DNA of 64,000 nt, taken from contig NC_015423.1 in the NCBI RefSeq assembly GCF_000204645.1, positions 1-64,000 of the forward strand, read 5' to 3'. Made by a program: the position numbers and the translations under genes. The notes below the pieces were generated by a model. It did no database searches and was not told where the DNA came from. It saw only the letters and a list, made by a program, of their open reading frames with translations. Shown here in pieces: positions 396-53,188 of the stretch. Numbering within the stretch: position 1 is the first letter of the stretch; each line of letters starts with the position of its first letter. Source of the DNA: Alicycliphilus denitrificans K601 (lineage in GTDB: Bacteria; Pseudomonadota; Gammaproteobacteria; Burkholderiales; Burkholderiaceae_C).

Positions 396-2393
396 ATGGC
401 AAAGAGAGAGGAAAAGGGAAGCGCCGGTAGCTTCTCCCGTGGGGCCGAGTTGTGGATGCACCAAGCCAGGCTGTTCGTGGTGGCCATCTGGACGGTTGTG
501 CTGATTTCCATCTTGGCCGGTCTGGCAGTCACGACGGCGTACTTCTGGAATGCGACTACCGCAGACGAAAAGTACGCGCTGGAGCGGAACGTCTTGGCGC
601 ACACGCGGGATGCGCTCTACATGACGGCCGGAAAGATGGAGCTGAACGTCAACGGCGAGCTGCGCAAGATGGAAGTTTCCGAGGTTGCCTTGCTGACCGA
701 CGACATGGCCGAAGATGCTTGGCGAAAGCTGCGCAACGGCGGCATGTTCGGCTTGCTGACTTCCATCGGTGTGGTGTTTCTGATCTCTTTGTACTGGTGG
801 GGCTATGGCCGTGAACGGATGCAGGACAACCAACTGCGCGGGGCCAAGCTGGTGGAAGGAAAGGAGCTTGCGCGACTGATCCGACACCGCGACGAGGCAA
901 GCCCTTATGAGATTGCGGGCGTGCCCATGCGCGTGAAGTCAGAGACGCTGCATACGCTGTTTGCCGGCGCGCAGGGTACGGGTAAGTCACAGCAGTTTTT
1001 CGCACTCATGAAACAGGTGCGGGCGCGTGGCAAGCGGATGATCGTGTATGACCCGACCGGCGAGTTCACCCAGGCGTTCTACCGTGAAGGCAAAGACATC
1101 CTGATGAACCCGCTGGACTCCAGAAGCCCGAACTGGAACATCTGGAACGAAATCGCCAAGGACTACCACTTCGACAACATGGCGAACGGCCTGATCCCCG
1201 ATCCGGCCGAGTCCGATCCATTTTGGGCGCTTGCGGGCCGGATGGTGCTAAAGGACGTGATTGCAGTATTGGGGCGCGAGGGCCGCCGCACGAACCGCGA
1301 CCTCTACAACGCTATCGCCAAGAGCAACCTGGACGCCATGCACGCATTGTTGCAGGGGACAGCGGGCGCAACCTATGTTGATCCCACGACCGAGCGCACG
1401 GGGATGTCACTCAAGATGACTGTTCAGAACCAGCTTGAAGCCTTCCGGTTTTTGCCAGATGAGGGCGAATCGTTCTCCATCCGAAAATGGGTACATGAAG
1501 AAGGCGATTCATGGATGTTCATCACAGCACGGGAAGCGATGCGCGAGGCATTGAAGCCCGTTCTGTCGTTGTGGATCGACACGGCAATCAAGGCCGTGCT
1601 TGACTTGGAGCCGATCCACCGCGAGCGGCTTTGGTTTTGCATTGACGAGCTGCCGACACTCCAAAAACTCGACATCCTGAAGCTGGCTCTGACGAACACA
1701 CGGAAGTACGGTTTGTGCATGGTGCTGGGCGTGCAGGACTTCAGCCAGCTCTACGAAATCTACGGGCACGATCTGGCCAAGACGATCATTTCCGGGTGCC
1801 AAACGAAGCTGCTGCTGCGTGTGACGGATGGAGCTGCGGCGAAGCTGTTGGCCGAATTGATGGGACAGGCCGAGGTGGATGAAAAGGATGAAACCTTGAG
1901 CTACGGCCTCAGCTCGCAGCGTGACGGCGTGAGCGTGATGGCGCGCCGACAGATGCGCGACCTTGTGCTGACATCGGAGATTTTGACGTTGCCCGATATG
2001 ACCGGCTATCTGCTGGTTCCGGGCGACTATCCCATTGCCCGCGTCAAGTATGGTTACGTGCCGACAGAGAAACAGGCCAACGGCTTCATCGAGCGCGACG
2101 GCTTTGCGATCAGCTTCAAGCCGACCACGGCGGCCGCAGCGCCGGCACCCGCTCCGTCCGCCGCTGAAGTTCAGCAGCCGGCCGCGCCGGAGCAAGGCGA
2201 CATGTTGGATGACGACGATATGGACGCGCCGGCTACGGTGGAGGTTATGCGCAACGAAAATGGCGATGTGATCGACAAGGCAACCGGCGAAATCATCAAG
2301 CCAGCCGAGAAGGTTTCGCGCGCGAAAGATGATGCAGATGCGAAATCAGCCGGCCAGGGCAAGAAGCCCAACCCGCTGGCGGATGCGCTATAG
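396..2393 (+). CDS. traD: Type IV coupling protein (TraD/TrwB family)
   Basis: This 665-residue inner-membrane ATPase should couple the relaxosome to the T4SS channel. Two membrane helices lie near residues 24-50 and 120-140. A Walker A motif, GAQGTGKS, lies near residue 190, and a Walker B-like segment, LWFCIDELPTL, near residue 410. The C-terminal ~120 residues are Ala/Pro-rich and acidic, as in the variable substrate-binding tails of this family. The start has a strong AAAGGAGG site and follows the TrwA-like gene directly. A degenerate P1 palindrome lies inside the 3' end. Residues 40-115 form a periplasmic loop between the helices, as in TrwB. Family assignment is firm. Confidence 0.95.
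   Translation: MAKREEKGSAGSFSRGAELWMHQARLFVVAIWTVVLISILAGLAVTTAYFWNATTADEKYALERNVLAHTRDALYMTAGKMELNVNGELRKMEVSEVALLTDDMAEDAWRKLRNGGMFGLLTSIGVVFLISLYWWGYGRERMQDNQLRGAKLVEGKELARLIRHRDEASPYEIAGVPMRVKSETLHTLFAGAQGTGKSQQFFALMKQVRARGKRMIVYDPTGEFTQAFYREGKDILMNPLDSRSPNWNIWNEIAKDYHFDNMANGLIPDPAESDPFWALAGRMVLKDVIAVLGREGRRTNRDLYNAIAKSNLDAMHALLQGTAGATYVDPTTERTGMSLKMTVQNQLEAFRFLPDEGESFSIRKWVHEEGDSWMFITAREAMREALKPVLSLWIDTAIKAVLDLEPIHRERLWFCIDELPTLQKLDILKLALTNTRKYGLCMVLGVQDFSQLYEIYGHDLAKTIISGCQTKLLLRVTDGAAAKLLAELMGQAEVDEKDETLSYGLSSQRDGVSVMARRQMRDLVLTSEILTLPDMTGYLLVPGDYPIARVKYGYVPTEKQANGFIERDGFAISFKPTTAAAAPAPAPSAAEVQQPAAPEQGDMLDDDDMDAPATVEVMRNENGDVIDKATGEIIKPAEKVSRAKDDADAKSAGQGKKPNPLADAL
2312..2329. repeat. 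P1 palindrome, degenerate, inside traD
   Basis: The core TTTCGCGCGCGAAA is intact and the two outer positions on each side do not match the consensus. It encodes Ser-Arg-Ala-Lys in the coupling-protein tail. Confidence 0.5.
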
Positions 2394-2404
2394 GAGGATA
2401 CCGA

Positions 2405-2860
2405 ATGAAAACTCAGAGACGGGCATTTCTACATTCCGTCGCGGCCGCCTGCTTGGCGGCTTTTTGCGTTTCCGTGCAGGCCGAGCCGGACTTGCTGCAA
2501 CCTGATGAAGCCTTCCGGGTGTCGGCTCGCCGGGTGGATGCGCGAGTGGTGGAGCTGGAGTACATCATCGCACCGGGCTATCACCTGTACCGCGACCGTT
2601 TCAGCTTCAAAACGGACAACCCAGCCGTGACGGTGGCCGGCGTTGAGCTGCCGCCACCGCTTGAAAAGTTCGACAAGGCGATGGGCCAGAACATGCGCTA
2701 CTACACCGAGCGGGTGGCGGTGCGCGTGCGCTTGGCTGGGGGCAATCAGGCCGTCAAACTGGTGGCTACGGCACAGGGCTGCGCGGCGATTGTGGGGGTG
2801 TGCTATGCACCGATCACCAAGGCTTTCAGCGTGCCGGCAATGGGAGGAAGACAGGGATGA
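2405..2860 (+). CDS. Periplasmic DsbD alpha-domain-like protein
   Basis: This 151-residue protein has a signal peptide (about residues 1-26, ending VSVQA) and one domain resembling the N-terminal periplasmic domain of the thiol:disulfide interchange protein DsbD (FRVSARRVD, APGYHLYRDRF). The redox cysteines would be C126 and C133, six residues apart where E. coli DsbD has five. The membrane and thioredoxin domains of DsbD are absent, so it could only act as a shuttle or holdase. It sits between the coupling protein and relaxase genes and overlaps the relaxase start by ATGA. The plasmid also encodes DsbC and the thioredoxin-like TraF, so a role in disulfide handling during T4SS assembly is a reasonable inference. 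Confidence 0.7.
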   Translation: MKTQRRAFLHSVAAACLAAFCVSVQAEPDLLQPDEAFRVSARRVDARVVELEYIIAPGYHLYRDRFSFKTDNPAVTVAGVELPPPLEKFDKAMGQNMRYYTERVAVRVRLAGGNQAVKLVATAQGCAAIVGVCYAPITKAFSVPAMGGRQG

Positions 2861-5742
2861 TTAGCATGAACAACGTGGGCAGCGCCGGGCAGGCACTGCA
2901 CTACTTTTCCGCTGACAACTACTACACCCAGGACGAGGGCTTGGAGCATTCCGAGTGGTTCGGCAAGGGGGCCGAGCACCTTGGGCTTTCCGGCAAGATT
3001 GATCGTCAAGCCTTCTTCGAGGTGTTGAACGGAAAGGTGGATGGCCAAGAGCTGGGCAAGTGGGTCAAGAACGAGGAAACCGGCGAGAAGGAACGCGAGC
3101 ACCGGCCGGGCACCGACATGACGTTTTCCGCGCCCAAGAGTGTTTCTCTCATGGCCGAGGTGTACGGCAAGCGGGACGTGCGGGAGGCGCATGAGGCGGC
3201 CGTCAAGAAGGCACTCAGCCACATCGAAACCGAGCTGGCCAGGACGCGGCAAACCGTGGACGGGAAGACCGAAGCGGTACAGACCGGCAACGTGACTGTG
3301 GCCATGTTCCGGCATAACACAAGCCGCGACCTCGACCCGCAGACGCATACGCACGCCGTCATCATGAACGCCACCAAGCGGGAGGATGGGCAGTGGCGCT
3401 CCCTGACGAATGAAGAAATCTACAACGCCCAGCGCGTTATCGGGGCCATCTACACGTCCGAGCTGGCCGACCGGCTCCAGGCGCTGGGCTACGACATTCG
3501 CCGCACCGACGAGAAAGGCAACTTCGAGATTGCCGGTATCACCCGCGAGCAGATCGAGCACTTCAGCCAGCGCCGGGCAGAAATAGAGGCGGCGCTGAAA
3601 GCCAAGGGCGTGGACATCGACGATGCCAGCGCGCAGCAGAAGGAAGACGCCACGCTGAAGACCAGAGCGCGCAAGGTGGACGTGGATCATGAAGCCTTGA
3701 TCGGGAGCTGGAAGGAACGAGCCAAAGACATCGGGATCGACTTCGACGCCATCCAGGCCAAGGCCGACGCGCAACGGGCGCAAGGTGGTGTGGTGCGCGC
3801 TGACAAGCTCACCGGGCGCGAGGCGATGTCCTTTGCGGCCGCACACCTGATCGAGCGCGAGGCCGTGGTATCCAAGAACGACCTCATGGCGGCGGCCATC
3901 GAGCACGGGGCAGGGCGCGTATCGGCATCGGAGGTGAAGCGGGCCTTCGACAAGCTGGAGAAGGATGGTGATCTGGTGGCCTTGCCTGACGGCAACTACA
4001 CGACCAAGAAGATGCTGGGCAGCGAAATGTGGGCACTCGACCAAGTGCGCGCACAGAAGGGCCAGACGCCGAAGATGATGGAGCCGGAAGCGGTGGCAGC
4101 GCGGATCGCGCAGGCCGAGGGCCGGCAGGGCTTCAAATACAGCGAAGGCCAGAAGGAGGCCATCAGCAAGGTACTGACCACTGAAGATCGTTACGTGGCG
4201 GTGCAGGGCCTTGCCGGGACGGGTAAGACCACTATGCTCAAAGGCGTGCGCGAAATGGCGCAGGAGCAGGGCTACACGGTGCGCGGCATGGCTCCGACCG
4301 GGGCGGCCAGCAAGGTGCTGGCCAGGGAGACAGGTATTGCTACTGATACCGTCTCGATGTTCCAGATCAAGGAGCGGCAGCTACAGAAGGACATCGAGTT
4401 TGCCAAGCAGTACGCACCCGACTTCCAGCGCAAGGCGGAAGTCTGGATCGTGGATGAATCGTCCTTCCTGTCGCAGCGCCAGAAGGCCCAGCTCGACCAC
4501 ATGGCCGAAAAGGCCGGGGCCAAGGTGGTGTACCTGGGCGACACGCTCCAGTTGCAGGGTGTAGAGGCCGGCAAGCCCTTCGAGCTGGCCCAGCGGGACG
4601 GCATGGAAACCGCGTACATGACCGAAATCAACCGCCAGAAGACCGCCGACCTGAAGCAAGCCGTGGACATCATCACTGGCCGCGACAACCTGGGGGACGG
4701 CCAGCGGCTCACCCAAGTGGAGCTGGCCAACAACGCGCGGGCCTTCGAGTACATGGACAAGGCTGGAATGATCCGGGAAATTCCCGAGAAGTCCGAGGAG
4801 GACAAGGGCCGCCTGGTGGCGGCCGTAGTGCAGGACATCTTGAAGCTCGACAAGGCAGAGCGTGAGCGCACCATCGTCATTACCGCCTATAACGAAGACA
4901 GGCGGGCCATCAATGCCGGCGTGCGCGAGGGACTGAAGGAGCAGGGCGAACTGTCGCGCTCCGAGGATACGCGCGAAATCTACACCTCGAAGGGGTGGAC
5001 GCGGGCCATGCAGAAGGAGGCGCAATACTACAAGGCCGGCGACGTGGTGCGCTTCGGGCGGGACTACCAGCAGATCGACGCCAAGAAGGGCGAATACATG
5101 CGCGTGTCGGCCGTGGATGCCCCCAATGGCACTGTGGTGCTCCAGAAGGAAGACGGCTCTGTGATCGCATGGCAGCCGAAGAAGCACAACAAAATCGAGG
5201 TGTACGACCGCGACACCCGCGAGCTGGCCAAGGGCGACCTGATCCGTATCACCCGAAACGAAGGCGAGTTCAAAAACGGCGAGGTGGCGCGCGTCACGGC
5301 TGTGGCTGGGGACAAGGTGACGCTGGAGCTGAAGCAAGGCAAGGATGTGTCACTGCACCAAGTGGATCTCTCTCGCAACAAGCATTGGGATCATGCCTAC
5401 GCGCAGACGGTTCACGCCTCCCAGGGCGCGACTCAGCACCGGGCCATCTTCCACATCCGAGCGCCTCAGACCGAGAGCGAGAAGAAGCAGGAGCGGGCGC
5501 TGGAGAACATGGCCAAGGTCTTCGGGGATCGGAGCTTCTATGTCGGGGCCACGCGCGCCTCGCATGAGCTGCGCATCTACACCAACGACAAGGCGGTGGC
5601 GGCCAAGGCGGTGGCGGCGAAGCAAGACAAGACCAGTGCGGTGGAAACGCTCCGGCAACACGAACGGGCCACGGCAATCACGGCCGACAAGGCGGGAGAA
5701 CGCCCGGTGTCGCCGCAGCGAAACGGTGACGTTCAACGGTAA
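2857..5742 (+). CDS. traI: MOBF relaxase-helicase (TrwC/TraI family)
   Basis: This 961-residue protein nicks oriT, stays bound to the transferred strand and unwinds the plasmid. The N-terminal relaxase domain has the candidate nucleophiles Y22 and Y23, the motif TFSAPKSVSL, and the metal-binding histidine triad in FRHNTSRDLDPQTHTHAVI. The C-terminal SF1 helicase has Walker A GLAGTGKT near residue 452, a motif II region WIVDESSFLS, and late motifs TVHASQGAT and VGATRASHELRIYT. I chose the ATG at 2857 because GGGAGG lies 10 bp upstream and TrwC proteins begin about 20 residues before the tyrosines. Its length matches TrwC (966 residues) and is well short of F TraI. Confidence 0.96.
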   Translation: MISMNNVGSAGQALHYFSADNYYTQDEGLEHSEWFGKGAEHLGLSGKIDRQAFFEVLNGKVDGQELGKWVKNEETGEKEREHRPGTDMTFSAPKSVSLMAEVYGKRDVREAHEAAVKKALSHIETELARTRQTVDGKTEAVQTGNVTVAMFRHNTSRDLDPQTHTHAVIMNATKREDGQWRSLTNEEIYNAQRVIGAIYTSELADRLQALGYDIRRTDEKGNFEIAGITREQIEHFSQRRAEIEAALKAKGVDIDDASAQQKEDATLKTRARKVDVDHEALIGSWKERAKDIGIDFDAIQAKADAQRAQGGVVRADKLTGREAMSFAAAHLIEREAVVSKNDLMAAAIEHGAGRVSASEVKRAFDKLEKDGDLVALPDGNYTTKKMLGSEMWALDQVRAQKGQTPKMMEPEAVAARIAQAEGRQGFKYSEGQKEAISKVLTTEDRYVAVQGLAGTGKTTMLKGVREMAQEQGYTVRGMAPTGAASKVLARETGIATDTVSMFQIKERQLQKDIEFAKQYAPDFQRKAEVWIVDESSFLSQRQKAQLDHMAEKAGAKVVYLGDTLQLQGVEAGKPFELAQRDGMETAYMTEINRQKTADLKQAVDIITGRDNLGDGQRLTQVELANNARAFEYMDKAGMIREIPEKSEEDKGRLVAAVVQDILKLDKAERERTIVITAYNEDRRAINAGVREGLKEQGELSRSEDTREIYTSKGWTRAMQKEAQYYKAGDVVRFGRDYQQIDAKKGEYMRVSAVDAPNGTVVLQKEDGSVIAWQPKKHNKIEVYDRDTRELAKGDLIRITRNEGEFKNGEVARVTAVAGDKVTLELKQGKDVSLHQVDLSRNKHWDHAYAQTVHASQGATQHRAIFHIRAPQTESEKKQERALENMAKVFGDRSFYVGATRASHELRIYTNDKAVAAKAVAAKQDKTSAVETLRQHERATAITADKAGERPVSPQRNGDVQR

Positions 5743-26312: not shown

Positions 26313-29300
26313 GTGGACATCGAAATTCAAACCTACTGGAACGTAGAAACGCTCTACTACGTCTTCAACGCCGTGGCCTCGATGATGGCCGGCGCTGGCT
26401 TCGCTGGCTTGCTGAAGCTGGTTTTCCTGTTCGCCATCGCAATCGGCATGTTCGGCTACATGAACAAGCAGCTCGAAATGGCGAAGTGGTTTATCCACGC
26501 CCTGGCCTTTGTGACCGTGCTCAATCTGCCGATCGCGCGCGTTGCCTTGACCGACAAGACAGGGCTGGAGCCGCCGCGCGTGGTTGATAACGTGCCCTTT
26601 GCCCTGGCCGTCACTGCGCAGACGACCAATCTGGTGTTCGGCGCGCTGACCAACACCTATGAAACGGTCTTCGGTGTCCCTGAAGACCTGGGCCTGCAAA
26701 AAGGGGATGTGGGCTTCGGGCACCGCATCCTGAAACAAGTCAATAACGCGACGATCCGCGACCCCAGCTTGCGCTCCGACCTGATGCAGTTCATCAAGGA
26801 ATGCACGCTGTACGACGTGAAAGACGGTGAAATCACCCCGCAGCAGATTGTGGGCGGCACCGATACCTGGAACGTGATTTTCAACAACACGAGTCCAGCC
26901 CGCTTCGTCACCTACAACACCCTGACGAATGCGCCTACCACCGATACCTGCACCAATGTTGCGGCCATCCTGAAGGAGAAGGTCAACGACGCGGTAACGG
27001 CTGGCCAAGCCTTCTACGGCAAGCAGGCTTTCACGCGGGCAAGCAGTGATGCTATCGCTACCAGCATGTTCGTTTCGACGGTGGGCACGTCCTACGACTG
27101 GATTCTGAACAACTCCAGCAACGCCTCAGACGCGATGAAGCAGGCGATGTTCAACAACATCTGGAAGGAGGCCGGCACCGAGCTGCCGGCGCTGCTGAAC
27201 GATCCTGCGCGGGTGGCCGAGGTTAATGCCCTGGCCGGCGCTGCCCAAGCGGCGCGGCAAGCGGACGGCTCCAACAGCACCTTGAGCCTGCTGGCGCAAG
27301 AGACGCTGCCCCACATGCGCAACTGGATCGAGGCAATCATCTACGGTCTGTTCCCGGTTGTTGTGGTGCTGATGGTTGTCAGCTCGACCGAGGGGGCAAA
27401 GAAGATCATTGCGGGCTACATGATGTCGCTGGCCTGGATCGGCCTGTGGCCAATCTTGTTTGCCGTCATCAACCACCTGTCGCTCATGCACTTGCGCTAC
27501 AAGGCGCGCGCGCTGGAGCTGGCGGCCGGTGTGCCGTTCCAGCTCACCGATGCTTTCGACGCCACGCTGACCAACGAGCAGGCGGCCATCGGCTACATGG
27601 TTGTCCTGGTGCCATTCATCGCCGGGGCCATCATCAAGCTGGGGCAGGGCGGTTTCATGGGTGTTGCCGACCGGATGATGACCGGCTTTGCCTCTGCCGG
27701 GGCGGCGGTGGGCGCAAGCAATGCCAGCGGCAATGTCAGCATGGGCCAAGCTGGACTTGATACCGCATCGGTCAACACGACCTCGATGAACAAGTACGAC
27801 AGCAACATCGGCCTGCAAGGTGGCGGGGCAACCATCGGTCGGGGCAATGGCTCGACGGCCACGATGGCCGCGAACGGCGCGGTTGCCTTGCAGCAGCTCC
27901 AAAACCGGATGCTGACGCAGATGAACATGGATCACCGACTGGAAGCCGGCCGCAACCAGGAAGCGCATCGTACCGACATCACATCGACCGGGGATCAACT
28001 GGCGCGCCGGCACGGCGACAGCTCCAGCCTCACGGACGTGAAGGGGCACGATACAACCCGTGGTCAATATCAGAATACGGGTGTGGTGGCGGCTCGCGGG
28101 AGCGAGGGTGGGTATGGTGGCCAGCACTCAACCGGCCAGAACTTGGATCGCAACTTCCGTGAGGGTTCGCACTTCCGCACGGCGGCCGGTGCCAATGACC
28201 AGCTCCACATGAATTTGGGTGTTGGCCGTGGGAACCCCAACGGCGGCGGTGCGCCTGGTGCTGGCGGTGCAGGCGGTGCGCCTGATCCGCGCGAGGAAAA
28301 GCGCATTGCCGACGCCATGAAGCAGGGCGGCGCGAACCAGCAACAGATCGACCAAGCTCTGAAGAACTACCGGGGCGGCAAGGGTGGTGCCCAGCCTTCG
28401 GGCGGCCTCATCAACGCGGGCCTGGGGTACAACGGCGCGAAGACCTACACGGCCGAGCACGGCCGGGATCGGGGCGTGGATACGGTTCATGGCAACCAGG
28501 AAGCCGCGCGCACCGAGCGCACGTTTGCTGAACGCGGCTCACGAACCGAGCAGGCCGGGACGGGCAACCAATCGGCCCAAAACGACCGCCACGGCCGCGA
28601 TGCAGCCCTCACAAACGTGGATGAAGTTTCCCGCGTGCGTGATGTCTCTGACCGCCGTGAGTTCGGTACTGGCGACCGCGCCAACCGTAGCGACAGCAAC
28701 AGCTTCACGACTCACAAGGATCTGATGGCCGATCCGTATCTGTTCGAGAAGGTGGCCGCGCGCAATGGCATGACCGCCATGCGTTTCGCCAACCAATCCG
28801 AAGACCGGATCATGGACATGGTGCAGGACTACGTGAGCGAGAAGGGCATGGTTCAACAAGCTACCACCATGCCGCAGCAGACTTTCGCAGGCGAAAAACT
28901 GCCGACCACGAAGGGCGAGCTGGAGAAGCAATCCGCCAAGGATCGCGCCGGCATCCCGCAGGACATCCAGGGCGTCCACAAGAAGAAGGTGGCACAGACC
29001 GGCTACGGCGGAACCGCTCCGCTCAAGGTCGATACCTCTGCGCCTCCGATCATTGCGGAATCCAGAGGGGACGTACAGGGCCAGCTCGACCCGAAGAACA
29101 AGGGCAGCATCCCGGCGCGTGCTGGGGCCTTGGACGAGAACGTGAATGCCTGGGCCAGCCCGGACAAGGCTGTAGGCGCTGGGCGGGCCAATCCCGCAGC
29201 CGTCAACGAGGACAACATGATCCGCGACGGCAAGGACACCGTTCAGAAGGCTTGGGACAAGCTGACTGGCGGCGACGGTACGGCAGACGGCGAAAAGCTG

Positions 29301-29360
29301 AACGACAACATGAAGCGGGAAACGGCCGCCTCGGTTCAGATCAACAACGGCAGCAAGTAA
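26313..29360 (+). CDS. traG: T4SS protein TraG
   Basis: This 1015-residue protein has membrane helices near residues 10-50 and 340-470 and a long, low-complexity Gly/Gln/Asp-rich C-terminal periplasmic region of about 550 residues. F TraG acts in pilus assembly through its N-terminus and in mating-pair stabilisation and entry exclusion through its C-terminus. It starts with GTG at 26313, twelve bases after the traH stop and behind AGGGGGG. A degenerate P1 lies near its 3' end, and a strong hairpin follows the stop codon. It closes the T4SS operon. Confidence 0.95.
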   Translation: MDIEIQTYWNVETLYYVFNAVASMMAGAGFAGLLKLVFLFAIAIGMFGYMNKQLEMAKWFIHALAFVTVLNLPIARVALTDKTGLEPPRVVDNVPFALAVTAQTTNLVFGALTNTYETVFGVPEDLGLQKGDVGFGHRILKQVNNATIRDPSLRSDLMQFIKECTLYDVKDGEITPQQIVGGTDTWNVIFNNTSPARFVTYNTLTNAPTTDTCTNVAAILKEKVNDAVTAGQAFYGKQAFTRASSDAIATSMFVSTVGTSYDWILNNSSNASDAMKQAMFNNIWKEAGTELPALLNDPARVAEVNALAGAAQAARQADGSNSTLSLLAQETLPHMRNWIEAIIYGLFPVVVVLMVVSSTEGAKKIIAGYMMSLAWIGLWPILFAVINHLSLMHLRYKARALELAAGVPFQLTDAFDATLTNEQAAIGYMVVLVPFIAGAIIKLGQGGFMGVADRMMTGFASAGAAVGASNASGNVSMGQAGLDTASVNTTSMNKYDSNIGLQGGGATIGRGNGSTATMAANGAVALQQLQNRMLTQMNMDHRLEAGRNQEAHRTDITSTGDQLARRHGDSSSLTDVKGHDTTRGQYQNTGVVAARGSEGGYGGQHSTGQNLDRNFREGSHFRTAAGANDQLHMNLGVGRGNPNGGGAPGAGGAGGAPDPREEKRIADAMKQGGANQQQIDQALKNYRGGKGGAQPSGGLINAGLGYNGAKTYTAEHGRDRGVDTVHGNQEAARTERTFAERGSRTEQAGTGNQSAQNDRHGRDAALTNVDEVSRVRDVSDRREFGTGDRANRSDSNSFTTHKDLMADPYLFEKVAARNGMTAMRFANQSEDRIMDMVQDYVSEKGMVQQATTMPQQTFAGEKLPTTKGELEKQSAKDRAGIPQDIQGVHKKKVAQTGYGGTAPLKVDTSAPPIIAESRGDVQGQLDPKNKGSIPARAGALDENVNAWASPDKAVGAGRANPAAVNEDNMIRDGKDTVQKAWDKLTGGDGTADGEKLNDNMKRETAASVQINNGSK
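28881..28898. repeat. P1 palindrome, degenerate right end, in traG
   Basis: The left arm is perfect, the centre is AG and the right arm reads GCGAAAAA, so two outer bases have been lost. It encodes Thr-Phe-Ala-Gly-Glu-Lys. Confidence 0.5.
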
Positions 29361-33147: not shown

Positions 33148-33375
33148 ATGGAAGACAAGAACCCTTATGAACTCGATACCGGCCCCGTGGCTGCGCCCCA
33201 TCCGGCCGACGTGCGCCGTGCGCAGTTTGTTCAAGCCAATGCTTCCCTGTCCCTGGAGGGGATGCCGGTGGACGCCGCCGACCTCGCCATTCAGGAGGCC
33301 GTCATCGCCGGCACCCTGACCCCTGACGAGGCGGTAGCCAAGTACCTGGAGCGCACACGCGGGGCCAGCCAATGA
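33148..33375 (+). CDS. VbhA-like Fic antitoxin
   Basis: This 75-residue helical protein contains SLSLEG (residues 33-38), the inhibitory motif [S/T]xxxE[G/N] found in VbhA-type Fic antitoxins, whose glutamate blocks ATP binding in the toxin. A second half, AIQEAVIAGTLTPDEAVAKYLER, matches the antitoxin-VbhA-like pattern. Its stop codon overlaps the Fic gene start, so toxin and antitoxin are translationally coupled. The pairing and the motif together make the call strong. Confidence 0.88.
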   Translation: MEDKNPYELDTGPVAAPHPADVRRAQFVQANASLSLEGMPVDAADLAIQEAVIAGTLTPDEAVAKYLERTRGASQ

Positions 33376-34460
33376 GCGAGCAAGAGGACTACACCTACCC
33401 CGGCACGCACGTTCTCAAGAACAAGGCCGACATCCGCGACCTCGCGGCGCTTCAACGCTTCGAGCGCGGCGCAACGGCCGTTCGCATCCAGGAGCTGCGC
33501 GAAAACCCGGTACGGGGCGAATACGACTTGGCCCACCTTCAGGCGATCCACAAGCAGGTTTTTCGGGATGTCTACGAGTGGGCCGGCGAAGTGCGCAAGG
33601 TGGATATTGCAAAGGGGCCTGCGGGCGACCGAACCCTGTTCACCTTCAAGGAAGACATCCCGCAGAAGGCGCAGGAAATCCAATCCGCGATCAAGGAAGC
33701 CAACTATCTGCGCGGGATGGACAAGGAGCAGTTCAGCGGGAAGATGGCCGAGGTCTATGCCGGCGTGAACGAAATGCACCCCTTCCGCGAAGGGAACGGC
33801 CGCACGACGCGCGAATTCATCGGGCAACTCGCCAAGGATGCGGGCTACCAGCTCGATTACTCCAAGGTCGATAAGCAGACGTGGAACGAGGCCGCCAAGG
33901 AATCCGCGCGCGGCAACCTGGAGCCGGCGCGCGAGGTTTTCTACGAAATCACGACAGTGGAGCGGGCGGTGGCCTTCGACAAGCTGGCCACGCGCGAAGC
34001 TCTGGCCAAGCATCCCGAGCTGGATGGTGCCTACAAGATGCTGCACGACGCCCACCGGGCCGGGCAGGACGCCGCTTACCTGCGGGCAGAAATTTCCAAA
34101 GAGCTGCACAGCGGCCGGCTGGTGGGCGATGGCGTGACGCTGGACGAGTCCAAGCGAGTCATCGACCACGCCGCAGCCTATCGCGGCCTGATGGTGCGGG
34201 ATGCCGAACGGCTTGGCGGGCAATTCAAGGGCGAAGTGGTGGCGGTTTCGTCGCACCACGCGATGCTCCAAGTGGGCGACATGATCGCCGTGCGCTACGA
34301 ACGCGCCAATCTGGATCGTGACCTTGCCGTGGGCGACCGCGTGACGATCCAGTACGACAAGGCGCGCAGCCAAGTCTATGAGCAGGGCAAGGAGCCGGCG
34401 CGGGATCGTGGCGGCAAGGACATGCAGATGGAGCGCGAGCGCGTGCCGACGCCGCGCTGA
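33372..34460 (+). CDS. Fic toxin with C-terminal KfrB-like module
   Basis: This 362-residue protein has an N-terminal Fic domain (about residues 1-190) with the complete catalytic motif H136-PFREGNGRTTR, so it should AMPylate target proteins. Residues 199-362 form a separate module beginning AVAFDKLATREALAKHPELDGAYK and containing GEVVAVSSHHAMLQVGDMIAVRYE, which I read as a KfrB-type domain. The same module ends the zeta-toxin protein encoded 2 kb downstream. In Bartonella VbhT, a Fic domain is followed by a T4SS-secretion domain, so this module may be an export signal. The protein ends in an Arg-rich tail. Its stop codon lies in a P1 palindrome. Confidence 0.9.
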   Translation: MSEQEDYTYPGTHVLKNKADIRDLAALQRFERGATAVRIQELRENPVRGEYDLAHLQAIHKQVFRDVYEWAGEVRKVDIAKGPAGDRTLFTFKEDIPQKAQEIQSAIKEANYLRGMDKEQFSGKMAEVYAGVNEMHPFREGNGRTTREFIGQLAKDAGYQLDYSKVDKQTWNEAAKESARGNLEPAREVFYEITTVERAVAFDKLATREALAKHPELDGAYKMLHDAHRAGQDAAYLRAEISKELHSGRLVGDGVTLDESKRVIDHAAAYRGLMVRDAERLGGQFKGEVVAVSSHHAMLQVGDMIAVRYERANLDRDLAVGDRVTIQYDKARSQVYEQGKEPARDRGGKDMQMERERVPTPR

Positions 34461-34477
34461 CTTTCGCGCGCGAAAGA
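34460..34477. repeat. P1 palindrome overlapping the Fic stop codon
   Basis: ACTTTCGC-GC-GCGAAAGA has one outer mismatch. Its first base is the last base of the Fic TGA stop codon. Confidence 0.68.
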
Positions 34478-34492
34478 CCAACGGAGAAGAAC

Positions 34493-34954
34493 ATGAATCG
34501 AGAAACGCTTGAGCTGCTGGTTTTTGTGGGGATGTGCTTTGCCGCGTCCTACCTGTTGATGCGCGAGTTTCGTGCCTACCTGGATGCCGTCTTCAGCCGT
34601 TCCCCCGGAGAGCTGTGGGCCGATGTCTGGAAGCGCGCTCATGCCGAGCACGACCTGAACCGTAAGGCCCAGCTCGAAATGTTCGGCTCCAAGTGGGCGA
34701 CCGTAGGGGGCCGCTTGCTTGTGGTGGGGCTTGTCATAGCTGGGGTGTGGTTTCTGGCTTTTGTCCCGGCTGCTGCCGTGCTGCTGGCCGTCTATCTGGC
34801 TTGGGGGTTGTACGCCACCCGCAGCCTTGGGCTGACGGCCAACGACGTGTATGCGCGCCTGCTGAAGCGCGACCGCATCACCTACCGCCTGCTGCACGCG
34901 GCCCTGTGGCCGCTCCATGCAAACCAAGCCAAGAACCAATCCGGTAATCAGTGA
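34493..34954 (+). CDS. Membrane protein between the two toxin modules
   Basis: This 153-residue protein has a short N-terminal hydrophobic segment (LLVFVGMCFAASYLLM), a charged helical region and a long hydrophobic pair (LLVVGLVIAGVWFLAFVPAAAVLLAVYLAWGLY). No family is recognised. It sits between the Fic gene and the zeta antitoxin candidate, with small gaps on both sides. It might be an immunity or docking protein for the toxins, but that is inferred from position. Confidence 0.62.
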   Translation: MNRETLELLVFVGMCFAASYLLMREFRAYLDAVFSRSPGELWADVWKRAHAEHDLNRKAQLEMFGSKWATVGGRLLVVGLVIAGVWFLAFVPAAAVLLAVYLAWGLYATRSLGLTANDVYARLLKRDRITYRLLHAALWPLHANQAKNQSGNQ

Positions 34955-34966
34955 GGAATCCAGACC

Positions 34967-35227
34967 ATGACCAATCAACTTTTCAGCCGTGCCGGCGTCC
35001 GCTACGAGGTGGCGCTGGATGTCCTGGGGGCCATCATCGCCCACCACTCCGAAGCCATTGCCGCCGAGCGCGAAAAAGCTACCCCTGACGAGGCCGTGAT
35101 TGCGGCCGCTCAGAAAGCGAAGGACGAGCTGCGCACGATCCGCGAAGACCTCGATCCGAATGCTGACGAGGCCATCGAGCGCGTCATCACTCAGTACGGC
35201 CAGCAGGCCCGCGACCTTTACCAATAA
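34967..35227 (+). CDS. Candidate antitoxin for the zeta-like toxin
   Basis: This 86-residue protein is predicted to be entirely helical (VALDVLGAIIAHHSEAIAAE, AAAQKAKDELRTIREDL, EAIERVITQYGQQA), which suits the three-helix fold of epsilon antitoxins. It ends 17 bp before the zeta-like toxin gene. I see no direct sequence match to epsilon, so the call rests on size, fold and neighbour. Confidence 0.6.
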   Translation: MTNQLFSRAGVRYEVALDVLGAIIAHHSEAIAAEREKATPDEAVIAAAQKAKDELRTIREDLDPNADEAIERVITQYGQQARDLYQ

Positions 35228-35244
35228 GGCAGGAGGGCAGACAA

Positions 35245-36927
35245 ATGGCTGGGGAGGTTTCCAAGTACGCAATGGAGAGCGCCTACAAAGACGTAGAGCG
35301 CGATGCACTGGCAAGAACGACGGCGCAGGAGAATCCGAAGGCGATCCTGTTGGGTGGCCAACCGGGATCGGGTAAATCGGCGCTGGCGGCCGAAGCGATC
35401 CGCGAGCTGCGCGCCAACGGTGGCGCTGTGGTGATCGACGCCGACCGGATGCGCGAGGAAAACCCGCGCTACAAGCAGCTTTCGCGCGAAGACCCCCAGC
35501 ACGCCGCCGACCGAACGCAGAAAGAGGCCGGCGAATGGGCTACCCGCCTCACGCTGGCCGCCGTGGAGAACCGCCGCAATCTGGTGGTGGACGGCACGAT
35601 GCGCAGCCCGGAGAACATCCGGGACTTGACCACTCGCCTGAAGGAACAGGGTTACGAGGTGGAGGCCAGAGTGTTGGCCGTCAACCCGGAAACCTCAGTG
35701 ACCCGCGCACGGCTGCGCTTCGAGGAACAGGTGGCCGAGCGCGGCACCGGGCGGTTCGTCAACAAGGAACAGCACGACAACGCCTACAACGGCATGGTGG
35801 AGTCCGTGCGCGCCTTGGAGCGGGACAAGCTCACCGACTCGGTGCGCGTCTATGACGCCAACCAACGGCAAATCTACGAGAACAGCCAAGAGCGCGGAGA
35901 GTGGAAACGGCGAGCAGCAGCGGTTGATGTGTTGGAGCAGGAGCGCGGGCGCGCCTGGACGCACGCCGAGCGGCGCGATTACGTGTCCGCCCTGGACGAC
36001 ATCAATACGCTGGCCAAGCAGCGGGAAGGTGTGCGCGACAACGTGACCTACACCGTGGGCACCGTGGCCAAGAACGATGCGAAGGACTACAGCAACGTCA
36101 ATGACGCCGCCAGGGCCTTCCGGGATGCCAAGGCTGAAGACCTGCCCTATGTGATCCGCACCGAGCGCCTTCCCAATGGCCGGGAATCGGCCTCGACGCC
36201 GGGGCAGACCACGTACACCGAGAAGGAGGGTGTGCGGGAGTATGGCAAGTACATCGGGGGCAACGACGAGGCCCTGAAGCGGGCCTACGCTGATGCCTTG
36301 CGGCCGGAACAGGAGCGCACCGCGCGGCCGGTGCTGGCCGACCGTGACGAGCTGGCGGCCAAGCTCGAAGCGGCTCGAAACGACTTGGCCCGTTTCGAGC
36401 AGACCCCGGCCTATCAGCGCGCCCAGGCATTCGACCAGCTCACCAAGCGGGAGGCGCTGGAGCGCCACCCGGAGCTGGACGGGGCCTACAAGCAGCTTCA
36501 CGACATCAAGCAGAGCTGGACACCTCAGACCAGTCAAGACCAGCGGGAAACCAGCTACTTCAATGCGCGTGCCGAGCTGTCCGGGCAGCTTCATCGGGGC
36601 CGCGTCCCGGAGGGAAGTGTCACCGTGGATGAATCGCGGCGCGTGATCGACATGGCCGCCAGTCATCGGGGCTTGGTGGTGCGGGATGCGCAAGAACTCA
36701 AGCAGGACGTGAAGGGCGAAGTGGTGGCCACCTCATCGCATCACGCCCTGGTGAAGATGTCCGACATGGTGGCTGTGCGCTACGAGAAGGAAGGGCTGGA
36801 TCGGGATGTCCGGGTAGGCGAGAAAGTGACGATCCAGCACGGCAACGAAAAGAGTCAGGTGTACGAGCAGGGCAAAGAGCCTGCGCGGGAGAACGCGCGG
36901 GACGTGGGCCGGGACATGGGCCGGTAA
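35245..36927 (+). CDS. Zeta-like toxin kinase with C-terminal KfrB-like module
   Basis: This 560-residue protein has a zeta/PezT-type kinase domain in the first ~230 residues: Walker A GQPGSGKS (38-45), VVIDADRMREENPRY, NLVVDGTMRSPENI and RARLRFEEQ. Zeta toxins phosphorylate cell-wall sugar precursors. A middle region (about 240-390) has the segment VIRTERLPNGRESASTPGQTTY. Residues 393-560 are a near copy of the C-terminal module of the Fic toxin. The last residues are Arg/Asp-rich. Two unrelated toxin domains with the same terminal module indicate a common use, perhaps delivery through the conjugation channel. Confidence 0.85.
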   Translation: MAGEVSKYAMESAYKDVERDALARTTAQENPKAILLGGQPGSGKSALAAEAIRELRANGGAVVIDADRMREENPRYKQLSREDPQHAADRTQKEAGEWATRLTLAAVENRRNLVVDGTMRSPENIRDLTTRLKEQGYEVEARVLAVNPETSVTRARLRFEEQVAERGTGRFVNKEQHDNAYNGMVESVRALERDKLTDSVRVYDANQRQIYENSQERGEWKRRAAAVDVLEQERGRAWTHAERRDYVSALDDINTLAKQREGVRDNVTYTVGTVAKNDAKDYSNVNDAARAFRDAKAEDLPYVIRTERLPNGRESASTPGQTTYTEKEGVREYGKYIGGNDEALKRAYADALRPEQERTARPVLADRDELAAKLEAARNDLARFEQTPAYQRAQAFDQLTKREALERHPELDGAYKQLHDIKQSWTPQTSQDQRETSYFNARAELSGQLHRGRVPEGSVTVDESRRVIDMAASHRGLVVRDAQELKQDVKGEVVATSSHHALVKMSDMVAVRYEKEGLDRDVRVGEKVTIQHGNEKSQVYEQGKEPARENARDVGRDMGR

Positions 36928-36942: not shown

Positions 36943-38154
36943 ATGGCGATCTACCAGATTGGCGGGCAATCCATTCATTCAGACGACCCAGCCTTGTCCG
37001 AGCTGCTGGCCAATATCTACAGCTCGCGGGAGCGGCCGCTGTGCCTGTGCCGTACCCCTGGCATTGAAATGTACGTGGCCAAGGTCGATGACAAGTACCT
37101 CATCAAACGGATGCCCAATTCTGGTAGCGGCCACGCCCCGGCCTGCGATTCCTACGAGCCGCCGCCCGAGCTGTCCGGGCTTGGCCAAGTCATTGGCTCC
37201 GCGATCCAGGAGAACCCCGACGAAGGCACCACGGCGCTGAAGTTCGACTTCGCGCTGTCCAAGGGGGCCAGCCGATCCGCGCCGGCACCGAGCGGAAAGG
37301 AGACGGATAGCGTCAAGACCGATGGCAACAAACTGACCCTGCGCGGCACCCTGCATTACCTGTGGGAAGAAGCGGGCTTCAACCGATGGGCACCGACGAT
37401 GGCCGGCAAGCGCAGTTGGTACGTGATCCGCAAGTATCTGCTGCAAGCAGCCGAGGACAAGACTGCAAAAGGCGCGAGCTTGGCCGGAATGCTCTACATG
37501 CCCGAATCGTTCAACGCCGAGAAGAAGAACGAAATCACCCAGCGGCGACTCGCGCAGATGATGCGAATCGCCACGCCCGAGAAGGGCACCCGGCGCTTGA
37601 TGCTGGTGGTGGGGGAGGTGAAGGAACTGGCTCAGTCGCGCTACGGGCACAAGATCGTCCTCAAGCACCTGCCCGATTGCCACTTCATGATGAACGACGA
37701 CATCTACAAGAGGCTGCTCAAGAGATTCGAGGTGGAGCTGGGCCTGTGGGATGCCTTGGAGGGCACCCACCTGATGATGATCGGCACTTTCAGCATCGGC
37801 GCTACCGGCGTGGCCTCGCTGGAGGAAGTCGCGCTGATGTGCGTGACCGAGAACTGGATTCCGTTTGAAAGCACCTTCGAGAAGATGGCGCTCGATGCTC
37901 TGACGCAGCAGAACCGGCGCTTCATGAAAGGGATGCGGTACAACCTGCCTTCCACGCGGCCGCTGGCCTGCGCGGTGGCTTCGGATACCGAGCCGGAGCC
38001 GACCGCCATGTACGTGGTTCCGCCTGGGGCCAGTGAAGACTATGCGGCCGCCGTCGATGAATTGATTGCGGAAAGCAAGCTCCCTTCATGGAAGTGGGTG
38101 GCTGGCGAGGCTCCTATGCCGGCGCTGCCGGCGCTGCCGGAGCACGGCCGATGA
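36943..38154 (+). CDS. DUF1173-family protein
   Basis: This 403-residue protein shows the pattern of the DUF1173 family, including an N-terminal cysteine segment (PLCLCRTPG, HAPACDSYEPP) and a middle region with LWEEAGFNRWAPTMAGKRSWYVIRKYL. The function is unknown; members are found on conjugative plasmids and integrative elements. It follows the zeta toxin gene by 15 bp with a GGGAGA ribosome site and overlaps the HAD gene by ATGA. Confidence 0.75.
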   Translation: MAIYQIGGQSIHSDDPALSELLANIYSSRERPLCLCRTPGIEMYVAKVDDKYLIKRMPNSGSGHAPACDSYEPPPELSGLGQVIGSAIQENPDEGTTALKFDFALSKGASRSAPAPSGKETDSVKTDGNKLTLRGTLHYLWEEAGFNRWAPTMAGKRSWYVIRKYLLQAAEDKTAKGASLAGMLYMPESFNAEKKNEITQRRLAQMMRIATPEKGTRRLMLVVGEVKELAQSRYGHKIVLKHLPDCHFMMNDDIYKRLLKRFEVELGLWDALEGTHLMMIGTFSIGATGVASLEEVALMCVTENWIPFESTFEKMALDALTQQNRRFMKGMRYNLPSTRPLACAVASDTEPEPTAMYVVPPGASEDYAAAVDELIAESKLPSWKWVAGEAPMPALPALPEHGR

Positions 38155-52150: not shown

Positions 52151-53188
52151 ATGGCAAGCGAAGCGATCATCACGGAAGAACTGATCTGTAAAGCCGCCGA
52201 ACAACTGGCGGCAGAGGGGATGCGCCCGACGAACGAGACGGTGCGCGAACTGCTGGCGAAGTGGACGAGCACGAAGGGCGGCAGCTACGCCACCATCGGC
52301 CCGGTGCTGCGCGCCTGGAAGGCCCGCCGCAAGGCTGCCGAGTCGGCCGAGCCGGTACGCGAGGCCGCGCCCCAGGTTGTGCTCGACAAGGTGCAGGGCT
52401 GGGCTTCGGACATGTGGGGCGTGGCCCTAGAGCTTGCCAATGGCCGCTTGGCCTCCGAGCGTGAATCCCTGGAGCGGGTGCGTCAGGAACTCGAAGCCGA
52501 GACAGCGGAGGCGCTGGCCCTGGCCGAGAAGCGAGAGGACGAGCGCGATGAAGCACGCCGGCAAGCCGCCGAGCTGACCGACCAACTCGCCAGCCTTCAA
52601 GTCGACGTGGCTGCGCAAACCGAACGGGCTGCGGCTGGTGAAGCACGGGCGGCAGAGCTGGAGAAGCGGGCCAATGAGGTGCATGACGACCTGAAGGCCG
52701 AGCGTGCGCGGCGTGATGAAGCGGAGGCTGCGCGCCGGACGGTGGAAGCCGAGCTTTCCACCCAGCGCGCGGACGTGGCCCGACTCTCCCAGCAAGCGGC
52801 AGACTTGGAGCGCGAGCTGGCCCAAGTTCGCGGTGAACTTGCGCGAGTGCAGGATCAAGGAGCGGCCGAGCTGGCGGCGGCGCGGAAAGAGCACGCCGAA
52901 GGGGCGGCTGCTCAACGTGCCCAGCATGATGCCGAGGTGGGGCGACTGAAAGATGCTCACCAGCAGGCATTGCACGACCAGAAGCAGCGCAGCGTGGAGG
53001 TCATCGGCAAGCTGGAGACTTCCAAGCAGCGCATGGAGGCCGAGCTGGACGAGGCGCGCAAAGAGGCACGCGATGCGGCCGCCCAACTTGGCCGGGTGAC
53101 AGGGGAACTCGACGCGCTGCGCAGTCAAGTCGCCAGTCAAGAGGCGACCATCCGGGGCTTCACCGCAAAGAAGGCTGACAAGACATGA
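52151..53188 (+). CDS. kfrA: KfrA-like coiled-coil DNA-binding protein
   Basis: This 345-residue protein has an N-terminal DNA-binding domain (LICKAAEQLAAEGMRPTNETVRELLAKWTSTKGGSYATIGPVLRAWKA), then an uninterrupted alpha-helical coiled coil from about residue 90 to 330. That is the KfrA design: autorepressor and plasmid-segregation helper that forms filaments. A clear AAAGGAG ribosome site and a repeat-rich operator precede it. The next gene overlaps its stop codon. Confidence 0.93.
   Translation: MASEAIITEELICKAAEQLAAEGMRPTNETVRELLAKWTSTKGGSYATIGPVLRAWKARRKAAESAEPVREAAPQVVLDKVQGWASDMWGVALELANGRLASERESLERVRQELEAETAEALALAEKREDERDEARRQAAELTDQLASLQVDVAAQTERAAAGEARAAELEKRANEVHDDLKAERARRDEAEAARRTVEAELSTQRADVARLSQQAADLERELAQVRGELARVQDQGAAELAAARKEHAEGAAAQRAQHDAEVGRLKDAHQQALHDQKQRSVEVIGKLETSKQRMEAELDEARKEARDAAAQLGRVTGELDALRSQVASQEATIRGFTAKKADKT

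What the first reader, a model, noticed from the sequence alone, without database searches (positions are those of the whole stretch)
33966..36924. Fic and zeta toxins share one C-terminal module: candidate conjugation-delivered toxins
Seen: residues 199-362 of the Fic protein and 393-560 of the zeta-like protein align along their whole length, sharing for example REALxxHPELDGAYK, VTxDESxRVID, GEVVAxSSHHA, VAVRYE and QVYEQGKEPAR, although the catalytic domains are unrelated. Known: in Bartonella, VbhT joins Fic to a BID domain that is a T4SS export signal, and its antitoxin VbhA has the motif also seen here. Inference: this KfrB-like module, with its charged Arg-rich tail, is an export or docking signal for the plasmid's F-type T4SS, so toxins may enter recipients or competitors during mating. 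The alternative is a shared DNA-binding or partition domain.
Basis: partly seen in the sequence, partly recalled or inferred. Interest (0 to 1): 0.9.

Follow-up and report, generated by a model that had tools for sequence, protein, structure and literature searches.

The report
Shared conjugation tail on two toxins
Two unrelated toxins on a conjugative plasmid carry the same C-terminal module, and its barrel domain also ends relaxases, coupling proteins and other DNA-transfer proteins of conjugative plasmids, which suggests, but does not prove, that the toxins are brought to the mating machinery and passed to the partner cell.

Summary
Fic residues 199-362 and zeta residues 393-560 share one module (55% identity, E 2e-61); the catalytic parts score no better than shuffles. 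The module is a helical part, a Pfam KfrB barrel (predicted OB-like) and a basic, disordered end finishing in Arg. Of 126 plasmid records with it, 109 are typed conjugative. In eight of nine F-type plasmids inspected the toxin genes lie just behind traG.

Going wider, the KfrB barrel is a C-terminal tag on TraI relaxases, coupling proteins, ArdC, Toprim-like proteins, methylases, KorA-type repressors, and Fic, zeta and AbiEii toxins; one plasmid has 13 KfrB domains. Most tagged proteins end in Arg (16 of 19 versus 21 of 192 untagged); three tagged coupling proteins do not. The best solved relative is the OB domain of gonococcal zeta1 toxin.

This favours recruitment to the transfer complex, plausibly with delivery as for VbhT. 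Against: no transfer was measured, this plasmid's own relaxase and coupling protein lack the tag, and KfrB of R751 is a KfrA-KfrC linker. Best reading: conjugation docking tag with probable delivery, a new variant of a known kind.

The parts
33148..33375 (+). VbhA-family antitoxin, 75 aa, overlaps the Fic start
   Evidence: Pfam VbhA PF18495 E 2.8e-11. The stretch SLSLEG fits the Fic-inhibition motif [ST]xxxE[GN] (motif recalled).
33372..34460 (+). FicT-type toxin with C-terminal module, 362 aa; HPFREGNGR present
   Evidence: Pfam Fic + KfrB; best PDB relative VbhT 3zc7 E 6.9e-40
33966..34220 (+). helical half of the shared module in Fic
   Evidence: alignment; model helices 2-72, pLDDT about 90
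34221..34382 (+). KfrB (OB-like) barrel of Fic
   Evidence: PF18790 5.1e-14; five strands in model; Foldseek to OB/S1 folds
34383..34457 (+). disordered basic C-terminal tail of Fic ending ...VPTPR
   Evidence: pLDDT below 50 for module residues 147-160
34493..34954 (+). 153-aa ORF with hydrophobic stretches between the toxin pairs, no confident family
   Evidence: only a sub-threshold CobD hit
34967..35227 (+). probable antitoxin of zeta, 86 aa
   Evidence: conserved small gene just upstream of zeta (or of its broken frames); aligned from 8 plasmids; no Pfam or PDB family
35245..36927 (+). zeta/PezT-type toxin with C-terminal module, 560 aa
   Evidence: Zeta_toxin 6.7e-50, KfrB 3.9e-8; PezT 2p5t E 1.4e-25
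36421..36711 (+). helical half of the shared module in zeta
36712..36867 (+). KfrB (OB-like) barrel of zeta
   Evidence: PF18790 8.4e-9
36868..36924 (+). basic C-terminal tail of zeta ending ...RDMGR
36943..38154 (+). DUF1173 protein, recurrent neighbour of zeta-KfrB
   Evidence: PF06666; same order
26313..29360 (+). TraG (F-type), end of the T4SS block upstream of the toxins
   Evidence: PF07916 6.4e-80
396..2393 (+). coupling protein TraD/TrwB type, no KfrB hit
   Evidence: PF10412 1.3e-126; own-genome KfrB search
2800..5742 (+). TrwC/TraI (MOBF) relaxase, no KfrB hit; C-terminus ...NGDVQR (start is the mechanical ORF start)
   Evidence: PF08751 3e-87; C-terminus
52151..53188 (+). KfrA-type DNA-binding protein (partner candidate in the rival model)
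   Evidence: KfrA_N PF11740 7.8e-18

Best explanation
The KfrB part of the module is an OB-like C-terminal docking tag that conjugative plasmids attach to proteins acting during DNA transfer. Shown by sequence: the same barrel closes relaxases, coupling proteins, ArdC, Toprim-like proteins, methylases, KorA-type repressors and toxins of three families; most tagged proteins end in a basic tail with a terminal Arg. Inferred: the barrel gathers its carriers at the transfer complex (coupling protein/relaxosome), the short basic end serves as the T4SS substrate signal, and on this plasmid the Fic and zeta toxins, held by their separate untagged antitoxins in the donor, are carried into the mating partner without them. 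There Fic would AMPylate topoisomerases and zeta would phosphorylate cell-wall precursors until the antitoxins are made from the incoming plasmid, so that partners that fail to establish it would be penalised.
For: Module strongly tied to conjugative plasmids: 109/126, versus 287/786 (RelE/ParE), 553/2073 (Fic domain) and 719/1352 (zeta kinase) controls. Toxin genes lie 1.3-5.9 kb behind traG on the same strand in the window and in 8 of 9 MPF_F plasmids inspected. KfrB over its Pfam cut-off at the C-terminus of three TraI relaxases, three coupling proteins, two ArdC proteins, one C5 methylase, two Eco57I methylase-helicases, two AbiEii toxins, two KorA-type repressors and DUF5710/Toprim-like and LPD7 proteins (the Toprim hits themselves are under their cut-off). 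Relaxase, coupling protein and AbiEii toxin tagged together on W15 and on W17. Other, apparently separate Fic-KfrB and zeta-KfrB fusions. Terminal Arg 16/19 tagged versus 21/192 untagged CDS, p 2e-11; [LIVM][STGE]R at the end 10/19 versus 1/192; the three tagged coupling proteins lack the terminal Arg. A coupling protein is found in 19/20 KfrB plasmids, KfrA only in 9/20. Precedents: VbhT shares its tail with its relaxase and is translocated (PMC5675462, passages); an F-type system carries at least 16 plasmid proteins (PMC11288057, passages); RP4 TraC1 and pSa ArdC are stated to be transferred (PMC5512222, passages).
Against: No transfer was measured. The window plasmid's own relaxase and coupling protein have no KfrB, so the VbhT-type argument (same tail as its relaxase) fails on this plasmid. 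Tagged coupling proteins and KorA-type repressors are not obvious cargo, so the barrel alone is not simply a secretion signal. KfrB of R751 is described as a KfrA-KfrC linker, and no KfrC-coupling protein interaction was detected for RK2 or R751, unlike RA3 (PMC8124265, passages). R388 ArdC was needed in recipients, not donors (PMC7213743, passages). The terminal Arg is missing from three Fic tails (...LENH...LASS...LATP), and tagged proteins share ancestry, so the counts are not independent events. The plasmid collection is redundant (many B. glumae records). The nine plasmids and the 20 records were chosen because they carry KfrB; two of the nine are typed non-mobilizable although MPF_F.
Confidence: 0.48

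Rival explanations
1. Plasmid-anchoring: the KfrB barrel docks the toxins on the KfrA/partition complex, as KfrB links KfrA to KfrC in R751. The toxins stay in the donor as an addiction or stability device; nothing is exported.
For: KfrB described as a KfrA-KfrC linker (PMC8124265); the window and near relatives such as CP094347 carry KfrA; in IncP-like plasmids VbhA-Fic sits inside the kfrA-kfrB-kfrC operon or is fused to kfrB with no kfrA-like gene annotated in front.
Against: KfrA is detected in only 9 of 20 KfrB plasmids (KfrA is poorly conserved, so some may be missed). The tag is also on relaxases, coupling proteins, ArdC and methylases, which are not partition proteins.
Confidence: 0.25
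2. Nucleic-acid tether: the OB-like barrel binds the transferred single strand (or RNA), so tagged proteins ride on or act at the T-strand without a protein signal of their own.
For: Foldseek matches to OB/S1/cold-shock folds; many carriers act on transferred DNA; for RP4 TraC1, travel bound to the T-strand is presumed in the literature (PMC7213743, passage).
Against: The nearest solved relative is an OB domain on a kinase toxin; OB folds can also bind proteins (recalled); no binding data.
Confidence: 0.12
3. Ordinary plasmid addiction modules: the tail is a passive by-product of fusion or an intramolecular regulator of toxin activity or stability.
For: Fic comes with a standard antitoxin and zeta with a conserved small gene; on the IncP branch a kfrB gene next to fic could fuse by read-through; zeta is broken up on two replicons; in zeta the barrel is less conserved than the kinase (48-77% versus 65-84%, five relatives).
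Against: In Fic the barrel is conserved about as well as the catalytic part (68-77% versus 62-80%, four relatives), and the same barrel recurs on many unrelated enzymes.
Confidence: 0.13

Closest known systems
VbhT/VbhA of Bartonella pVbh (FicTA with a BID domain; Harms 2017, PMC5675462)
   Same: VbhA-type antitoxin plus FicT-type toxin (best PDB relative is VbhT) with a C-terminal domain, on a plasmid with conjugation genes; the C-terminal domain type is shared with relaxases on some other plasmids
   Different: The tail is KfrB/OB-like plus a short basic end, not BID; F-type rather than VirB-type T4SS; the relaxase of this plasmid lacks the tail; transfer untested
PezT-BID toxin of Chelativorans plasmid 1 (proposed in PMC5675462)
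   Same: zeta/PezT toxin with a C-terminal domain on a plasmid with a conjugative T4SS
   Different: tail unrelated; predicted only, in both cases
Gonococcal zeta1 toxin (PDB 6epg/6eph/6epi; PMC5923241)
   Same: zeta toxin on a conjugative plasmid with a C-terminal OB domain; best PDB match of the KfrB profile (E 0.019) and Foldseek rank 1
   Different: the helical half is not shown there; the passages seen give the OB domain no role and report it only in gonococcal and one Eikenella toxin
KfrB of IncP-1 plasmids
   Same: PF18790 domain and a basic C-terminal end (for example ...KLSR)
   Different: stand-alone protein, described as linker of KfrA and KfrC
Polyvalent proteins of phages and conjugative elements (Iyer 2017, PMC5512222)
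   Same: KfrB carriers include ArdcN, MPTase-PolyVal, LPD7, Toprim-like and methylase-helicase proteins of that class
   Different: the paper's main text holds neither Kfr nor Fic as a word (passages only)

Membership tests
KfrB domain (PF18790) | profile score over Pfam gathering cut-off | tested here: met
   51.1 and 33.6 bits, cut-off 25
FicTA (VbhA/VbhT) toxin-antitoxin | Fic core with HPFx(D/E)GN(G/K)R and a VbhA-family antitoxin next to it | tested here: met
   Pfam; HPFREGNGR; best PDB relative VbhT
FicTA (VbhA/VbhT) toxin-antitoxin | toxic AMPylation neutralised by the antitoxin | not testable with these tools
   needs bench work
Zeta/PezT toxin | zeta kinase domain with Walker A (GGQPGSGKS) | tested here: met
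   Zeta_toxin 6.7e-50; PezT
Zeta/PezT toxin | epsilon/PezA-type antitoxin gene upstream | tested here: inconclusive
   conserved small gene upstream, but no family hit
[quoted passage not shown]
   no BID hit in Pfam; the C-terminus is KfrB
VbhT-like interbacterial T4SS effector | toxin tail homologous to the tail of its own plasmid's relaxase | tested here: not met
   window relaxase has no KfrB; the condition is met on other plasmids for AbiEii-KfrB (W15, W17)
VbhT-like interbacterial T4SS effector | translocation into recipients | not testable with these tools
   needs a CRAfT-type assay
Conjugative (MOBF/MPF_F) plasmid | relaxase, coupling protein and F-type T4SS proteins on one replicon | tested here: met
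   near relative CP094347 typed conjugative MOBF/MPF_F

The most novel reading that the evidence does not exclude
KfrB plus a short basic C-terminus ending in [LI]-[STGE]-R is a general address tag of conjugative plasmids: the barrel, present also on the coupling protein of some plasmids, collects a whole set of tagged proteins (relaxase, primase-like, antirestriction, methylase, repressor and toxins of at least three unrelated families) at the channel, and the terminal Arg motif, absent from the coupling proteins, marks those to be exported. Toxin delivery during mating would then be widespread and predictable from sequence, and would include gonococcal zeta1.
Probability: 0.3. Interest if true: 0.92.

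Novelty: new variant of a known kind. Interest (0 to 1): 0.76.

Why it matters
Few conjugative effector toxins are known, and T4SS signals of most conjugation systems are hard to predict. A single domain that closes relaxases, coupling proteins, antirestriction proteins and toxins gives a sequence handle on which proteins a plasmid may send along with its DNA, gives a C-terminal domain of a solved gonococcal toxin a candidate role, and turns the question of whether TA toxins are weapons during mating into a simple reporter test in laboratory strains.

Tried and rejected
A BID domain: rejected, no Pfam hit. Recent duplication of the tail or gene conversion: rejected; DNA identity 65%, and the 8 Fic tails form one clade (100/100) apart from 24 zeta-type tails in a 32-row tree (12 of 29 inner branches open, the tool warned of long branches meeting, and the zeta side includes rows from cut or broken frames). 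KfrB elsewhere in the host genome: only two weak chromosomal hits (E about 1e-3, below cut-off) in prophage-like frames. The helical half outside Fic/zeta: the one genome scan matched 58 stretches; 23 were relatives, giving 18 loci: 10 with both Fic and zeta tails, 1 Fic only, 6 zeta only, 1 partial. PDB search with the whole-module profile: nothing below E 0.28; the barrel profile gave gonococcal zeta1 at 0.019, weak alone, so I lean on its agreement with Foldseek rank 1 (E 3.8e-3, TM 0.33, none below 1e-3). Full-length Fic model: useless (pLDDT 43). How common: Pfam KfrB in 8 of 369 genomes of the class, the barrel alignment in 13 of 399 of the order, both counts including the window's own genome, and 537 of 72,556 plasmid records by tblastn with one KfrB query: uncommon everywhere. 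Only 30 proteins with the barrel went through Pfam, hand-picked for variety (2 window toxins, then 9, 10 and 9; the rest were judged by my own profile or by the family search of whole records), so the list of carriers is not a frequency table. Papers: nothing on KfrB as a shared tail in the searches (15 papers hold the word KfrB, several of them unrelated; open-licence papers only). I saw passages of eight papers and no whole text.
Full report
WHAT IS THERE. The window is bases 1-64000 of a 75,488-bp contig of a two-contig genome. It encodes a TrwC/TraI relaxase, a TraD-like coupling protein and F-type T4SS proteins such as TraC and TraG; the near relative CP094347 is typed conjugative, MOBF, MPF_F. 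Behind traG lie two toxin-antitoxin pairs: VbhA-like antitoxin and Fic toxin (33148-34460), and an 86-aa gene and a zeta toxin (34967-36927). The 86-aa gene has no known family, but its relatives lie just upstream of the zeta gene, or of its broken frames, on the other plasmids aligned (8 rows), so I take it as the zeta antitoxin (inference).

THE OBSERVATION. The C-terminal 164 residues of Fic and 168 of zeta are homologous: 55% identity, E 2e-61, score 445 against at most 78 in 1000 shuffles, while the catalytic parts are unrelated (38, with 519 of 1000 shuffles as high). The second half of the module holds the curated Pfam domain KfrB, over its cut-off in both proteins. The AlphaFold2 model of the module (18 sequences, mean pLDDT 87) shows helices at 2-72, five strands at 86-139, and a disordered end. 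Foldseek found no match below E 1e-3; the best is gonococcal zeta1 toxin (E 3.8e-3, probability 1.00, TM 0.33), followed largely by S1, cold-shock and other OB-like folds, with the Bartonella Fic effectors BepA and Bep1 also on the list. A profile of the barrel picks the same zeta1 toxin as best PDB sequence (residues 335-392, E 0.019). The zeta1 paper (PMC5923241, passages) calls its C-terminal domain an OB fold, gives it no role in the passages I saw, and reports it only in gonococcal and one Eikenella toxin. That domain is probably a KfrB domain (two weak agreements of different kind).

HISTORY. In a tree of 32 tails all 8 Fic tails form one clade with full support and 24 zeta-type tails lie on the other side. 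Of 18 loci from the genome scan, 10 have both tailed Fic and tailed zeta, 6 zeta only, 1 Fic only, 1 a partial frame. So the pair has been kept while the plasmids diverged (Fic catalytic identity down to 62%, zeta kinase to 65%). The Fic barrel keeps 68-77% identity (four relatives), about as much as the catalytic part; the zeta barrel keeps 48-77% against 65-84% for the kinase (five relatives; a sixth could not be scored).

LINK TO CONJUGATION. Of 126 plasmid records with the Fic module 109 are typed conjugative, 7 mobilizable, 10 non-mobilizable; with the zeta module 109 of 127 are conjugative. Controls: 287 of 786 for a RelE/ParE toxin, 553 of 2073 for the Fic catalytic domain, 719 of 1352 for the zeta kinase domain, the last two including tailed ones (Fisher p 5e-27, 5e-42, 2e-14; redundancy of the collection makes these optimistic). 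I inspected nine MPF_F plasmids (two of them typed non-mobilizable): in eight the tailed toxin gene lies 1.3-5.9 kb downstream of traG on the same strand; in the ninth (Paraburkholderia) it lies beside other tra genes, in the other orientation.

THE TAIL IS A COMMON TAG. Following the barrel outward changed the picture. KfrB is over its Pfam cut-off at or near the C-terminus of: TraI/MobA-type relaxases with LPD7 (three: W17, W15, G766), coupling proteins (three: W15, W17, W19), ArdC-type proteins (two; one, on W20, with four KfrB copies), a C5 methylase, two Eco57I-methylase/helicases, two AbiEii toxins, a DUF6036 nucleotidyltransferase, two KorA-type repressors, an LPD7 protein, and two proteins with Toprim hits that are themselves under their cut-off, one of them with DUF5710. 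Fic-KfrB exists in three lineages: this one, IncP-type plasmids, and a genome of the same order (L052). Zeta-KfrB also occurs as an apparently separate fusion (L013; no tree of the catalytic parts was made). Searching 24 records or genomes already known to hold KfrB gave 13 KfrB domains on pMsip01 (in 11 frames), 9 on pBVB_1, 6 on W20 and 5 on W17. On W15 and W17 the relaxase, the coupling protein and an AbiEii toxin are all tagged.

THE C-TERMINUS. I grouped 152 tail-bearing frames into 57 clusters (single linkage, 60%). In 53 of 57 the last barrel ends within 30 residues of the C-terminus and 38 of 57 end in Arg (four internal or doubtful frames are included; without them 36 of 53). Among 211 annotated CDS from eight loci of seven plasmids, 16 of 19 tagged versus 21 of 192 untagged end in Arg (p 2e-11), and 10 of 19 versus 1 of 192 end in [LIVM][STGE]R (two searches gave 21 and 1 of 187 before five omitted CDS were added). 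The three tagged coupling proteins stop flush with the barrel and have no terminal Arg (0 of 3 versus 38 of 54 other clusters). Limits: tagged tails are homologous, so this is conservation across divergence, not independent gain; three Fic tails have another last residue; the motif was read off overlapping data.

HOW IT PROBABLY WORKS. Shown: shared tail, tie to conjugative plasmids, carriers. Inferred: the barrel docks its carriers on the transfer complex and the basic end gives substrate character. In favour: the identified carriers are mostly proteins that act when DNA moves; a coupling protein is present in 19 of 20 KfrB plasmids but KfrA in only 9 of 20 (records chosen by KfrB; KfrA is hard to detect); VbhT sets the precedent for a FicT toxin carried by a conjugative T4SS through a tail shared with its relaxase (PMC5675462, passages); [quoted passage not shown] and RP4 TraC1 and pSa ArdC are stated to be transferred (PMC5512222, passages). 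Against: no transfer data; this plasmid's own relaxase and coupling protein are untagged; KfrB of R751 is a KfrA-KfrC linker, and KfrC of RK2 and R751, unlike that of RA3, showed no interaction with the coupling protein (PMC8124265, passages); R388 ArdC is needed in the recipient, not the donor (PMC7213743, passages), so being a carrier type does not prove travel. The untagged antitoxins would stay behind, as expected of a delivered toxin, but that is equally true of ordinary addiction modules. The stated targets (topoisomerases for FicT; cell-wall sugar precursors for zeta1) are by family, not tested here.

AN EVOLUTIONARY STEP. In Acidovorax plasmid pAV3334-2 the order is DNA-binding protein (kfrA position), VbhA, Fic, separate kfrB, kfrC; in pJJ1886_4 and in the Klebsiella plasmid OW969791 Fic and KfrB are one frame between VbhA and kfrC (in OW969791 that next gene is annotated only as hypothetical), and KfrA is not detected in OW969791. 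This shows how such a fusion can arise by joining neighbours, and it keeps the stability-operon reading alive for that branch.

VERDICT. Observation confirmed. A new variant of a known kind (VbhT-like conjugation-linked toxins), with a new candidate tag. The fusions themselves are visible to Pfam; I found no paper that treats them (searches listed under Tried and rejected).

Noticed in passing
L028, L117 (IncP-type plasmids OW969791, pJJ1886_4) and L116 (pAV3334-2): VbhA-Fic sits in the kfr operon: separate fic and kfrB in pAV3334-2, one fused fic-kfrB frame with no kfrA-like gene annotated between korB and VbhA in the enterobacterial plasmids; some E. coli plasmids match only the second half of the fused frame.
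   Followed up: partly
PDB 6epg/6eph/6epi, residues 335-392: The C-terminal OB domain of gonococcal zeta1 toxin is the best structural and sequence match to KfrB.
   Followed up: partly
W19 (pMsip01), L039 and L106-L107: Thirteen KfrB domains in 11 frames on one 77-kb plasmid, on coupling protein, methylases, LPD7, TrfB-related and unknown proteins.
   Followed up: partly
L113:1678-5004 (-), Diaphorobacter plasmid NZ_CP080762: An ArdC-type protein ending in four tandem KfrB domains.
   Followed up: no
L010:9939-11471 and L026:5276-6501: On a Denitratisoma plasmid and a Mycetohabitans megaplasmid the zeta gene is split over several frames while a frame with the tail persists.
   Followed up: no
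window 36943-38154: A DUF1173 gene directly follows zeta-KfrB on several MPF_F plasmids, also in Paraburkholderia, where the rest of the order differs.
   Followed up: no
G000:C1:1851139-1851264 and 1998695-1998820: Two prophage-like chromosomal frames with a weak KfrB-like barrel (E about 1e-3, below cut-off), very similar to one in genome G262.
   Followed up: partly
window 34493-34954: A 153-aa ORF with hydrophobic stretches lies between the Fic and zeta pairs, also in CP094347; no family.
   Followed up: no
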